Shown one piece after another: positions 26,800 through 54,067 of a stretch of DNA of 64,000 bases. The DNA comes from Molossus alvarezi (lineage: Eukaryota > Chordata > Mammalia > Chiroptera > Molossidae), in contig CM073907.1 of the NCBI GenBank assembly GCA_037176705.1, positions 14,477,001 through 14,541,000 on the forward strand, given 5' to 3'. How positions within the stretch are numbered: position 1 is the stretch's first letter; each line of letters starts with the position of its first letter. Under the pieces are notes generated by a model that saw nothing but the letters and a program-made list of their open reading frames with translations, ran no database searches and was not told the origin of the DNA. The translations under genes and the position numbers were made by a program.

Positions 26800-27605
26800 C
26801 CAAGGTCCGCAGCAACCTGGGCAGGGGCCAGGGAACTCTGCGGGAAGTTACTCCTACTGCCTCCCTTGCCACCCTGCATGGGCCCTGGGAACTCTGTAGC
26901 CTGCTAAAGTCTCCGCTGGAGCCACACAGACTCTCAGAGACCAGGGAACTCGGCGGGACCAGGGAACTGGGCGGGAAGTTACTGCTACCGCATCCCTTGC
27001 GACCCTGCATGGGCCCTGGGAACTCTGTAACCTGCTAAACTCTCTGCTGGAGGCCCACTGACTCACTGGACCCAGGGAACTCAGCAGGACCAGGAACTCA
27101 GCGGGAAGTTACTCCTACCACCTCCCTTGCCATCCTGCATGGGCCCTGTGAACTCTGTAGCCTGCTAAGCTCTTGGCTGGAGCCACATGGACTCGCGGAG
27201 ACCAGGGGACCCTGTGTGACCAGGGAACTCGGCGGGAAGTTACTCCTACCACCTTCCTTGCCACCCTGCATGGGCCCTGGGAACTGTGTAGCCTGCTAAG
27301 CTCTCAGCTGGAGCCGCACAGACTTGCGGAGACCAGGGGACTCGGCGAGACCAGGGAACTCAGCGGGAAGTTACTCCTACCACTCCCTTGCCACACTGCA
27401 TGGGCCCTGGGAACTTTGTAGCCTGCTAAGCTCTCAGCTGGAGCGGCACAGACTCGCGACCAGGGGACCCGGTGGGACCAGGGACCTCGTCGGGAAGTTA
27501 CTCCTACCGCCTCCCTTGCCACACTGCATGGGCCCTGGGAACTCTGTAGCCTGCTAAGCTCTCGTATGGAGCCGCACAGACTCCAGGAGACCAGGGGACT
27601 CATCA
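26800..27605 (+). repeat. L1 5' UTR monomer array, six copies of about 130 bp
   Basis: The marker CATGGGCCCT recurs at 26877, 27008, 27138, 27269, 27399 and 27527, spacing 128-131 bp. Each monomer includes a CGGGAAGTTACTCCTACC-like segment and AACTCTGTAGCCTGCTAAG. In mouse L1, tandem 5' UTR monomers act as promoter units. That role is inferred here from position only. Confidence 0.85.
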
Positions 27606-45026: not shown

Positions 45027-45434
45027 TGTTGTAACCCAGGAGACCGACCACACTCAGACTTAATTCTTTAGATTTGAATGTGCTTTATTATGCTAAAGCC
45101 TGCATGCAGGGTCTGCCACCTAAGGACACAGCCCAGAGCAGCAGCCCCCAGGAGCTAGTATGGCTGAGTTTTATAGGGGGGGTTGTGGTGCAAATTGCAA
45201 GCAAGCAGGATGTACAGAAGCAGATATCAGCGGTTAGCTGGCCTTGCAGAAGCATTCTTTGGCAGGTACACCCTGCAGGTGGTTTTCCCAAGGCTCAAGA
45301 CGCTCTCAAGATGTCCTTGGAGAATTGCTAGGAAAGGGAGGGGGTTTAGCTAGGAGAAGACTGGAAAATTTTCTTTGGCCCTTTGTTTCCCGCGAAGGTC
45401 TCTGGGAGCCTTGGGGCACTCTCAGACCCTAACA
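45027..45434 (-). repeat. 3' LTR of the provirus
   Basis: 408 bp, starting TGTTAGGG and ending TTACAACA in sense orientation. It carries an intact TATA box (TATAAAA, plus-strand TTTTATA at 45169-45175) and the poly(A) signal AATAAA (plus-strand TTTATT at 45084-45089) about 85 bp downstream. It differs from the 5' LTR by five single-base substitutions and no indel. Confidence 0.95.
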
Positions 45435-50960: not shown

Positions 50961-50963
50961 TCA
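50961..50963 (-). promoter_or_regulatory. Gag stop codon (UGA) at the gag-pol junction
   Basis: GAAGAC-TGA-GGGAGT in sense orientation, with protease continuing in the same frame. Gammaretroviruses make Gag-Pol by reading through this stop, most often UAG. Here it is UGA. I did not fold the downstream pseudoknot. Confidence 0.7.
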
Positions 50964-52532
50964 GTCTTCAGCCTCCAACAGCAGGCGTGCTTGTCGAGGC
51001 TTTTGTTCCTCTGCCCCTTTCTCGCTTATTCGCTTTTTGCACTCAGATTTCCAGTGGCCGCGCTCCTTGCAATAAGCACATTGGTCTCGGTGTAGAGGCG
51101 GTTTCTTAGCTCTTTTCTTTACCTTATTTTCTTGCTTTTCAGGCGTGGCTAATAGGATTCGGGACAACTGCTTAGTTTGTTCCCTGATGGGATCCTCCCG
51201 ATTCTGGTATACTTTCTGGGCTATTTCTATTAGTTCACTTATAGCCTTTCCTTCAAAGCCCTCTAATTTCTGTAATTTCTTTCTTATGTCTGGGGCTGAC
51301 TGAGAGACGAAGGCCATATTAACCATTCGTCTGTTATTCTCATTATTTGGGTGTAAGGGAGTATATATTCTATATGCCTCCAGCAATCGCTCTAAGAAAG
51401 CGGCGGGAGATTCATCTTTTCCCTGTATGGTAGCATTCACCTTGGCCAAATTAGTGGGCTTCTTGGCTGCAGCCCTTAGACCCCTAAGCAGAGACTGGTG
51501 ATAATGGCGCAAAGCCGTCATCCCTGCATCTGTATTCGGATTCCATCTGGGGGGGCTCGTGGGGAGTTGTTCCTCTAGTTCATCCCTTCTGGTATGTGAG
51601 TCCCCTTCTACATCCCCTAGGATAATTTTTGCCACCTCCCTGTGGATTCTCTCTCTTTTCTCTGAAGAAAACAAAGTTTGCAAAATTTGTTGGCAATCAT
51701 CCCAAGTGGGCTGATGTGTACGAAAAATGGTTTCAAGAAGAGATATTAATTTCTGTGGATCCTCTGAGAAAGGAGGATTCTGATGTTTCCAATTATATAA
51801 ATCAGATGTTGAGAAAGGGACATAAACCATCCGGGGCGGCCCCTGGGGTGCCCCTGGTTGCGGGGGAACTTCCCTTAAGGGCAAAAGAGGCACAGAGGAA
51901 TCCGGGCCCAGCGGGGGCTGGTAGAAGGTTCCGCCCCTAGTGTGAGGAGGGCTTTGGACTCTAACATCGGGTCCTGGTTCTGGGGCCCGTGGCTCCGGAT
52001 CTTGGGGTGAGCCTCTTGGATAAGGTGGGGGATTGAATAGCCCGTCCGCAATGTCATCATTGTCACCTGAAAGAACAGGGTATAGCCTAGGCTTAGGTTT
52101 TTCCCGGCTCGGAGCTCTCTCTTTTTCTTCTCTACTCGTATGAGGTATAGACTTCCCTTGCGGCTTAGGAGCTGCAACCAAAATAGTCTTCCTACCTACT
52201 CTGGCATACATCTCCCCTGCCTTTAGTTGCTGGCATTTTTTGATGTAACTAGCCTTGTCAGACACGATGTCTACCCAAACATCAATGTATACCCTTTGAT
52301 TGGGGTGGGGAACCCCGTACACAACAGACCTCACAGCAAACAAAAGACTCAAGTCAAAAGACCCCTCGGATGGCCAATTAACTTGGAATGTTGGCCACTC
52401 CAATTCACAAAGGGTCCGGAGGACCCCTGGATCGGCTGGTGTTCCGTAGCCTTGGGATCTCCTGGAAAAGTCAGAAAAGTTAGCAAGAAGGCATTCAAGG
52501 GGGGTACGGGGTGTTGACGGTCCTTGTCCCAT
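50961..52532 (-). CDS. gag: Gag polyprotein, uninterrupted
   Basis: 523 codons from ATG 52532. The N-terminus MGQGPSTPRT has the Gly2 expected for myristoylation of matrix (about residues 1-125). A PPPY late-budding motif is at 168-171 in the p12-like region. Capsid follows (from about 219), with the major homology region around residues 369-390 (IQGKDESPAAFLERLLEAY). The nucleocapsid has one CCHC knuckle, CAYCKERGHWKSEC (485-498). The length is near that of murine leukaemia virus Gag. The frame closes with UGA, immediately followed in frame by protease. Upstream the same frame stays open for another 278 or more codons through the leader. Confidence 0.94.
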   Translation of the reverse strand: MGQGPSTPRTPLECLLANFSDFSRRSQGYGTPADPGVLRTLCELEWPTFQVNWPSEGSFDLSLLFAVRSVVYGVPHPNQRVYIDVWVDIVSDKASYIKKCQQLKAGEMYARVGRKTILVAAPKPQGKSIPHTSREEKERAPSREKPKPRLYPVLSGDNDDIADGLFNPPPYPRGSPQDPEPRAPEPGPDVRVQSPPHTRGGTFYQPPLGPDSSVPLLPLREVPPQPGAPQGPPRMVYVPFSTSDLYNWKHQNPPFSEDPQKLISLLETIFRTHQPTWDDCQQILQTLFSSEKRERIHREVAKIILGDVEGDSHTRRDELEEQLPTSPPRWNPNTDAGMTALRHYHQSLLRGLRAAAKKPTNLAKVNATIQGKDESPAAFLERLLEAYRIYTPLHPNNENNRRMVNMAFVSQSAPDIRKKLQKLEGFEGKAISELIEIAQKVYQNREDPIREQTKQLSRILLATPEKQENKVKKRAKKPPLHRDQCAYCKERGHWKSECKKRISEKGAEEQKPRQARLLLEAED

Positions 52533-52619
52533 CCTACTGAAAGCAAAACAGTTAGAGCAGCAGAGAACACGGAACACAAATAGACAGACAACCGTGGTCA
52601 AAACACAAAATACTAATTT
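52533..52619 (-). other. Leader segment in the gag frame encoding a hydrophobic anchor-like stretch
   Basis: The 29 codons just before the gag ATG are open and in frame. They encode LVFCVLTTVVCLFVFRVL, a continuous hydrophobic run of membrane-span length, then a short polar link (SNCFAFSR) into Gag Met1. Glyco-Gag of murine leukaemia virus is an N-terminally extended Gag started at an upstream CUG, with a hydrophobic anchor in the added part. No in-frame ATG lies upstream here, so use as protein would need a non-AUG start. Confidence 0.55.
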
Positions 52620-53345
52620 CAGAACAGACGCACCCGAAAGTGCCAGGCGCACCCGAAAGTGCCAGATGGAAACCCACCGGGTCTCCTGCACCCGAAAGTG
52701 CCAGACGCACCCGAAAGTGCCAGACGCACCCGAAAGTGCCAGATGCACTCGAAAGTGCCAGACGCACCCGAAAGTGCCAGATGGAAACCCACCGGGTTTC
52801 CTGCACCCGAAAGTGCCAGACGCACCCGAAAGTGCCAGATGCACCCGAAAGTGCCAGATGGAAACCCACCGGGTCTCCTGCACCCGAAAGTGCCAGATGC
52901 ACCCGAAAGTGCCAGACGCACCCGAAAGTGCCAGATGGAAACCCACCGGGTTTCCTGCACCCGAAAGTGCCAGACGCACCCGAAAGTGCCAGATGCACCC
53001 GAAAGTGCCAGATGGAAACCCACCGGGTCTCCTGCACCCGAAAGTGCCAGATGCACTCGACAGTGCCAGACGCACCCGAAAGTGCCAGATGCACCCGAAA
53101 GTGCCAGATGGAAACCCACCGGGTCTCCTGCACCCGAAAGTGCCAGACGCACCCGAAAGTGCCAGATGGAAACCCACCAGGTCTCCTGCACCCGAAAGTG
53201 CCAGATGCACCCGAAAGTGCCAGATGGAAACCCACCGGGTCTCCTGCACCCGAAAGTGCCAGATGCACCCGAAAGTGCCAGATGGAAACCCACAGGGTCT
53301 CCTGCACTCGAAAGTGCCAGATGCACCCGAAAGTGCCAGATTAAA
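52620..53345 (-). repeat. Leader minisatellite: about 28 copies of a 19-mer with a recurring 20-mer
   Basis: Plus-strand unit CACCCGAAAGTGCCAGATG (or ..ACG), 19 bp, repeated about 28 times. After every two to four units a 20-bp piece GAAACCCACCGGGTCTCCTG occurs (about 9 times). Both edges carry the same AATTTCAGAACAGA (near 52615 and 53358), which suggests growth by slippage or unequal exchange between short repeats of the leader. No unit contains a stop in any of six frames, so long frames cross the array on both strands. It lies between the primer site and gag, where packaging signals of gammaretroviruses sit. Confidence 0.95.
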
Positions 53346-53639
53346 ACAGATTGGTACCAATTTCAGAACAGATGGAAACCCACCGGGTTTCCCAGGTCAG
53401 GAGTCGGCGTCCCGACCCTGAGGGGGAAGTGCGGTTGAGCGGCGTCCCGCCCGCAACAATCCCAGAACTCTCCGGAGCTACCGAAAGGGAAATCCCTTAC
53501 CCAGATCCTCCAGGCCGAAGTCCTAGTCCGAATTAGCCAAATCAAAAGCCAGAACGAATGTAGGTGCAGAGGGCGAGGAGGCAGCCCTCCCCATCGTCTG
53601 AGGAGGTCGACCCCACAGAAAAGGGGGACCTCGCGGCTG

Positions 53640-53657
53640 ATCTCGCTGGGGCCTCCA
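53640..53657 (-). other. Primer binding site, tRNA-Thr type
   Basis: TGGAGGCCCCAGCGAGAT in sense orientation, two bases inside the 5' LTR. It is complementary to the 3' end of a tRNA ending CTCGCTGGGGCCTCCA, which matches tRNA-Thr(UGU) as I know it. Most exogenous gammaretroviruses use tRNA-Pro. Confidence 0.8.
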
Positions 53658-53659
53658 AA

Positions 53660-54067
53660 TGTTGTAACCCAGGAGACCGACCACACTCAGACTTAATTCT
53701 TTAGATTTGAATGTGCTTTATTATGCTAAAGCCTGCATGCAGGGTCTGCCACCTACGGACACAGCCCAGAGCAGCAGCCCCCAGGAGCTAGTATGGCTGA
53801 GTTTTACAGGGGGGGTTGTGGTGCAAATTGCAAGCAAGCAGGATGTACAGAAGCAGATATCAGCGGATAGCTGGCCTTGCAGAAGCATTCTTTGGCACGT
53901 ACACCCTGCAGGTGGTTTTCCCAAGGCTCAAGACGCTCTCAAGATGTCCTTGGAGAATTGCTAGGAAAGGGAGGGGGTTTAGCTAGGAGAAGACTGGAAA
54001 ATTTTCTTTGGCCCTTTGTTTCCCGCGAAGGTCTCTGTGAGCCTTGGGGCACTCTCAGACCCTAACA
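53660..54067 (-). repeat. 5' LTR of the provirus
   Basis: 408 bp, TG...CA ends. The poly(A) signal AATAAA is kept (plus-strand TTTATT at 53717-53722). The TATA box region reads TGTAAAA (plus-strand TTTTACA at 53802-53808) where the 3' LTR has TATAAAA. The other four differences from the 3' LTR lie outside recognisable core signals. Confidence 0.95.
53802..53808 (-). promoter_or_regulatory. Altered TATA box of the 5' LTR
   Basis: TGTAAAA in place of TATAAAA of the 3' LTR (45169-45175). This position would set the start of proviral transcription, so the change may weaken the 5' promoter while the 3' LTR keeps the consensus. Confidence 0.7.

What the first reader, a model, noticed from the sequence alone, without database searches (positions are those of the whole stretch)
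52533..53399. Gag frame runs without a stop through the leader into a membrane-anchor-like segment
Seen: from the TGA near 53398 to the gag ATG at 52532 the gag frame is open (about 288 codons). The last 29 codons encode a run of membrane-span length (LVFCVLTTVVCLFVFRVL) joined to Gag Met1. A CTG is in frame at 53364-53366, and there is no upstream ATG in this frame. Known: murine and feline leukaemia viruses make glyco-Gag, an extended Gag with an upstream CUG start and hydrophobic anchor. Inferred: this provirus may encode a glyco-Gag-like protein whose outer part is the repeat array.
Basis: partly seen in the sequence, partly recalled or inferred. Interest (0 to 1): 0.75.

Follow-up and report, generated by a model that had tools for sequence, protein, structure and literature searches.

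The report
Possible short membrane-anchored Gag in provirus
Just before its main structural gene, a young retrovirus copy in this mammalian genome carries a 30-codon stretch that could make a membrane-anchored form of the Gag protein, but the long repeat array in front of it is probably not part of that protein, and the stretch could instead be a U-rich RNA signal.

Summary
The frame is as described, but the long open run is not evidence of a protein: the 19/20-nt array has no stop in any of six frames, its units lie in all three phases, and a second copy with the same flank differs by a 58-nt block, which changes the frame. An extension kept in evolution must start after the array. What remains is 52533-52622: CTG (52622-52620) plus 29 codons, hydrophobic, joined to Gag Met1. 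In 41 copies of this family the first codon is CTG (39) or ATG (2), in frame with the gag start in 35; in a sister family it is GTG in 19 of 19, in frame in 15. Anchor-like segments sit at the same place in 21 of 21 database Gags with an extension of 18 or more residues. A short glyco-Gag-like extension is the best single reading, about 50%. The main rival is a U-rich tract with branchpoint and AG, a splice-acceptor or ribosome-landing element whose hydrophobic reading is incidental: one related family is hydrophobic in every frame, one has a stop, and no excess of synonymous change was found. Translation is not shown.

The parts
52533..52622 (-). candidate N-terminal extension of Gag: CTG (52622-52620) plus 29 codons, hydrophobic, in frame with gag ATG
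52620..52622 (-). candidate non-AUG start codon CTG (context GTT CTG A); ATG in two family copies, GTG at the matching place in sister family B
52534..52557 (-). branchpoint-like CTCTAAC (52557-52551), pyrimidine tract and AG (52538-52537; second AG 52535-52534): rival splice-acceptor reading
52630..53341 (-). tandem array of 19-nt and 20-nt units, the four unit types folded each form a hairpin; free of stops in all six frames, length variable between copies
53374..53393 (-). separate 20-nt B-type unit in front of the array
53495..53503 (-). splice-donor-like TGG|GTAAGG between primer site and array (GT at 53500)
   Evidence: rank 6 of 295 GT sites with a recalled weight matrix
50961..52532 (-). 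gag, 523 codons then TGA; Gag_MA and Gag_p30
53660..54067 (-). 5' LTR
   Evidence: 403 of 408 identical to the 3' LTR
45027..45434 (-). 3' LTR

Best explanation
The 30 codons directly before gag act as a short glyco-Gag-like extension. A minority of ribosomes start at the CUG at 52622-52620 (AUG in two family copies, GUG in sister family B), so that Gag carries a signal-anchor next to MA and enters the secretory pathway, while most start at the gag AUG and make ordinary Gag. The array upstream is not translated as part of it; it is a run of RNA hairpins in the leader. Shown: the frame, the hydrophobicity, the kept start-capable codon, anchor-like segments in related families. Inferred: initiation, membrane insertion, function.
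For: Start-capable codon: CTG in 39 and ATG in 2 of 41 family A copies, in frame with the gag start in 35 of 41; GTG in 19 of 19 family B copies, in frame in 15 of 19; G at -3 and A at +4 in all 60. From this codon to Met1 it is 90 nt in A and 105 in B, so the frame is kept over a length change of 15 nt. In the copies shown for A (window), B (L077) and D (L100) the gag frame is the most hydrophobic of three and the only open one; L100 has only 0.34 T, no acceptor-like end, and an in-frame ATG 42 codons upstream. P0002 shares 11 of 17 core residues in register: 24 of 100000 permutations score as high; neutral drift of 1 change per site reaches 11 with frequency 0.00011 or in 0 of 11742, but 0.025 and 0.054 at 0.5. 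Of 122 Gag relatives held, 21 have an extension of 18 or more residues, and 21 of 21 have an anchor-like 18-mer 0-10 residues before Met1, against 0 of 1996 windows inside the same Gags (some are near-copies, and most are MLV-like, where glyco-Gag is known). MLV has its TM segment at the leader/MA junction (PMC12530543, passages).
Against: No translation data. Composition alone makes most open shuffles hydrophobic. Family C copies shown are hydrophobic in all three frames; family E (L093) has a stop and hydropathy 1.39 in the gag frame. Between A and B (one pair, window and L077) the segment shows no codon periodicity (differences .55/.37/.42, dN .67, dS .70) while MA does (.22/.16/.56), and part of the matching T-rich DNA is read in different frames. 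Frame-breaking indels: 6 of 41 A, 4 of 19 B, many in C. The gag frame is best in three of five families, which by my own reckoning is not significant alone. The P0002 likeness is one of 19 comparisons, its DNA unknown; P0121 and P0006 show none. Flank charges do not fix a type II orientation.
Confidence: 0.5

Rival explanations
1. A U-rich RNA element before gag: branchpoint, pyrimidine tract and AG form a splice acceptor (with the donor-like site at 53500 the whole array would be an intron), or the tract is an unstructured ribosome-landing site. Hydrophobic codons follow from the T content and mean nothing as protein.
For: Families A and B share TGCTCTAACTGTTT and CTTTCAG next to gag, the best kept DNA of this stretch between them. 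B keeps AGG after TTC/CTC in 18 of 18 rows and A keeps the last AGG in 37 of 40. Donor-like 53500 ranks 6 of 295; acceptor AG 52537 ranks 12 and AG 52534 ranks 21 of 564 in the provirus (recalled matrix). Family C copies shown are T-rich (0.57-0.58) and hydrophobic in all frames. No codon periodicity between A and B.
Against: The AG at 52537 is present in only 5 of 40 A rows (the AG 3 nt on is kept in 37). Family C has no AG in the last 20 nt before the gag start in 20 of 31 copies (11 have one), and L100 is neither T-rich nor acceptor-like there, yet its gag frame is hydrophobic. It does not account for CTG/ATG/GTG at one place, nor for stops in the other two frames in A and B.
Confidence: 0.37
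2. One reading: translation starts upstream (CTG 53366) and runs through the array, giving a long repeat-rich domain.
For: The frame is open for 288 codons in the window and for 64-296 codons in 7 of the 8 other family A copies held with the leader. The distance from the single-copy leader to the start-capable codon is a multiple of three in 6 of 9 copies, somewhat more than one in three (copies are related).
Against: All six frames of the array are open. The distance is not a multiple of three in 3 of 9 copies: the copy with the same flank (75 of 75 nt) has 58 nt more, and L048, whose gag match is free of stops, is also out of phase. L077 and L100 show no tandem array in the 351 and 339 nt before gag.
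Confidence: 0.03
3. Chance: a T-rich stretch that happens to be open, with no role as protein or signal.
For: 23.8% of shuffles open, joint chance 1.6%; within-family changes look neutral.
Against: Hydrophobic segments recur next to Gag Met1 across families, and the start-capable codon is kept.
Confidence: 0.1

Closest known systems
Glyco-Gag (gPr80gag) of murine leukaemia virus
   Same: In-frame extension of Gag from a leader non-AUG (CUG) codon; membrane segment at the leader/MA junction (PMC3423011 and PMC12530543, passages)
   Different: MLV adds 88 residues with a leader domain described as cytosolic; here about 30, almost all anchor. MLV has three N-glycosylation sites, here two sequons (N18, N366). 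No translation or function shown here.
Reticuloendotheliosis virus and Galidia/Echidna ERVs
   Same: Gag groups with these (15 rows, support 100/100); REV gag 51% identical over 60% of the query
   Different: No paper tying glyco-Gag to REV was found (listings; passages of two papers); the window family has a tandem array in the leader
Upstream ORF before gag in bat betaretroviruses (PMC3621094, passage)
   Same: Open frame upstream of gag in the gag frame
   Different: That ORF ends 3 nt before the gag start; another genus

Membership tests
Gammaretroviral glyco-Gag | open frame upstream, in frame with gag AUG | tested here: met
   33 of 39 copies; 35 of 41
Gammaretroviral glyco-Gag | non-AUG (CUG) or AUG start upstream | tested here: inconclusive
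   start-capable codon kept as CTG/ATG/GTG; use not shown
Gammaretroviral glyco-Gag | membrane segment at the leader/MA junction | tested here: met
   hydropathy 2.66 over 18 residues; hydropathy only, no membrane-topology program was at hand
Gammaretroviral glyco-Gag | type II orientation with cytosolic leader domain | tested here: inconclusive
   N side +1 (or +3 if read from the array), C side +1; a start at 52622 leaves nearly no cytosolic part
Gammaretroviral glyco-Gag | N-glycosylation of Gag part | tested here: inconclusive
   two sequons
Gammaretroviral glyco-Gag | purifying selection on the frame | tested here: not met
   no synonymous excess within families (no power; gag control equally neutral) or between A and B (one pair)
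Gammaretroviral glyco-Gag | protein made; aids release or counters host restriction | not testable with these tools
   needs cells or peptide data
Leader splice acceptor | branchpoint, pyrimidine tract, AG before gag | tested here: met
   ranks 12 and 21 of 564 AG sites, so not outstanding
Leader splice acceptor | spliced RNA | not testable with these tools
   no RNA data

The most novel reading that the evidence does not exclude
REV-like gammaretroviruses of mammals make a short glyco-Gag consisting of little more than an anchor, started at an NUG codon that lies at the exit of the leader structure, and in this family an expandable hairpin array directly in front of that codon tunes how often it is used; copy-number change of the array is free because the protein starts only after it.
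Probability: 0.15. Interest if true: 0.65.

Novelty: new variant of a known kind. Interest (0 to 1): 0.42.

Why it matters
Glyco-Gag is shown for MLV and reported or predicted for FeLV, GALV and KoRV (PMC3423011, passages); if the REV-like side has it too, it may predate that deep split, and loss or shortening can be traced. The family also gives a clean case where a stop-free frame through a repeat array misleads, and where one short stretch may serve both as RNA signal and as protein.

Tried and rejected
Looked for relatives with DNA in viral contigs and genome contigs: none. Rfam over 52400-53700: only two sub-threshold mir-204 hits inside the array, taken as chance. Within-family N/S counts: rejected as a test, because gag MA codons look equally neutral (family A 71 N to 23 S against 18 to 9 in the segment). 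Whole-leader folding z of -12.4 is inflated by the repeats and not used. Fisher test of variable paired against unpaired positions in the array units: p 0.09, suggestive only. The protein-guided alignments of the segment between families are gapped and weak. P0121 was not searched in the host genome (unanswered, not repeated). A paper search for a leader tandem repeat in bat gammaretroviruses found nothing. On rechecking, the array-phase count was refined (one of the four copies out of phase owes it to the 4-nt loss at its gag ATG), and my first claim that family C has no AG before gag was narrowed to 20 of 31; odds left unchanged.

Full report
What is there. The window holds a provirus on the minus strand: LTRs 54067-53660 and 45434-45027, 403 of 408 positions identical, flanked by CACT on both sides (read). 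gag (52532-50961) has Gag_MA and Gag_p30, ends in TGA and is followed in the same frame by pol; env matches TLV_coat. Gag is closest to proteins of the REV-like side: in a tree of 31 Gag proteins (the window and 30 of the 122 held, chosen by me) it falls in a 15-row group with REV and the Galidia and Echidna ERVs (support 100/100), next to P0001, P0002 and P0004 (100/99). The window lies in a 2.5-Gb host assembly.

The long open frame. But the stretch 52640-53340 has no stop in any of the six frames. The region consists of 28 units of 19 nt and 10 of 20 nt (one of these in front of the array), and the 19-nt units start in all three phases (10, 9, 9). The four unit types folded form small hairpins, -4.4 to -11.2 kcal/mol, and the changes seen at paired places (one in the 19-nt, two in the 20-nt unit) keep the pair (counts, structure). 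Among nine family A copies the distance from the single-copy leader to the start-capable codon is a multiple of three in six and not in three (to the gag start: five and four, L008 lacking 4 nt at its gag ATG). Six of nine is rather more than one in three would give, and speaks a little for phase; the copies are related. But the copy on contig C68, whose 75 nt of flank held are identical to the window's flank, has 30+11 units against 28+10, 58 nt more. It is an allele or duplicate of this insertion, and there the upstream CTG is out of frame. L048, whose gag match is free of stops, is out of phase too. L077 (family B) and L100 (family D) show no tandem array in the 351 and 339 nt held before gag; L056, the same copy as L048, has a short one. 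The array is best seen as an RNA feature of one family, and a kept Gag extension must begin after it.

The 30 codons before gag. The segment from the CTG at 52622 reads LKLVFCVLTTVVCLFVFRVLCCSNCFAFSR and joins Met1. Its hydropathy maximum is 2.66; the other two frames reach 1.98 and 1.72 and contain stops. Shuffles show that composition gives much of this. I therefore turned to relatives.

Proteins. Of 312 Gag relatives found 120 were listed (only 7991 candidates were scored); with later searches 122 were held. Twenty-one have an in-frame extension of at least 18 residues aligned from near Met1, and all 21 have an anchor-like segment 0-10 residues before it; of 1996 windows inside the same Gags none has. 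Dropped before that count: extensions under 18 residues (for example P0036, P0047, P0050) and proteins aligned only from residue 11 or later. The 21 include near-copies (P0041, P0045, P0088) and are mostly MLV-like; REV-like are P0002 and P0006 and, by its likeness to P0002, P0121. P0002 shares 11 of 17 core residues with the window in register, about as high as MA (71 of 115) and capsid (137 of 201). The 18 other extensions compared, P0006 and P0121 among them, did not stand out as much (lowest permutation value 0.027).

Copies in the host genome. A DNA search gave 225 matches, with 40 of 111 candidates scored; I took the 39 places besides the window whose match reached the gag side. In 33 of 39 the segment is open and in frame with the gag start; L019, L029 and L030 have indels inside, L015, L032 and L046 lack 4 nt at the gag ATG. 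Thirty-one of 39 read Met-Arg where Gag has Met-Gly, and 11 of 39 have a shifted run of C soon after, so many are gag-defective. A protein search with P0002 gave 82 matches, 77 of 4228 candidates scored; 59 begin at residue 44 or earlier, and I fetched 53 of these. In 46 of 53 there is no stop in the last 30 codons. By family, assigned by a simple rule of mine in which C takes the remainder: A 41 with the window, B 19, C 31, D (L100) and E (L093). Distinct copies open over 30 codons in gag frame, +1, +2: A 31, 0, 6 of 34; the others 36, 25, 27 of 43. In the others the median hydropathy is the same in all three frames (2.55, 2.51, 2.54).

Start codon. In A the first codon is CTG in 39 and ATG in 2 of 41 (L041, L056); in B the matching codon is GTG in 19 of 19, with G at -3 and A at +4 throughout; distance to the gag start is a multiple of three in 35 of 41 and 15 of 19. 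A and B differ by 15 nt in this distance. L100, 66% identical to P0006, has ATG 42 codons before Met1 and a gag frame that alone is open and hydrophobic (2.94 against 1.24 and 1.17) with only 0.34 T.

Against. In the C copies shown all frames are hydrophobic; in E the gag frame has a stop and 1.39. C subfamilies differ by a 7-nt indel that changes the frame. Between A and B (window and L077) the MA codons differ mostly at third places (.22/.16/.56), the segment does not (.55/.37/.42; dN .67, dS .70), and the best-kept DNA of the stretch is TGCTCTAACTGTTT with CTTTCAG, which looks like branchpoint, tract and acceptor. Within families amino-acid and silent changes are in neutral proportion, but so they are in gag itself, so this test cannot decide.

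Judgement. The two main readings do not exclude each other; MLV's leader also holds packaging stem-loops in the glyco-Gag coding region (PMC3423011, passage). The kept NTG codon, the frame kept from A to B, and L100 tip me towards a translated short extension, at about even odds. Searches for REV together with glyco-Gag in three spellings gave one, two and two papers (the last two calls gave the same pair); passages of that pair do not describe a REV glyco-Gag, and the remaining one (PMC3651342) was seen in the listing only. Most subscription literature is not covered.

Noticed in passing
52630-53341: Array of small RNA hairpins in the leader, 4+2 to 30+11 units among nine family A copies; differs by 58 nt between the window and contig C68 at the same flank.
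   Followed up: partly
53523-53594: The only ATG found in the leader between 53700 and the gag ATG: a 23-codon upstream frame in front of the donor-like site.
   Followed up: no
52530-52532 and L010-L047: 31 of 39 family A copies read Met-Arg at the gag start: the glycine needed for myristoylation (recalled) is lost; database protein P0121 also reads MRQ.
   Followed up: no
L015, L032, L046: Three copies share a 4-nt loss at the gag ATG, perhaps a subfamily spread without its own gag start.
   Followed up: no
50961-50963: gag and pol are in one frame separated by TGA, the read-through arrangement, with TGA.
   Followed up: no
L058, L067, L068, L072-L075: Near-identical family C copies on several contigs, most of them small, probably duplicated host segments.
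   Followed up: no
26824-27601: Tandem array of a 131-nt unit, about 6 copies.
   Followed up: no
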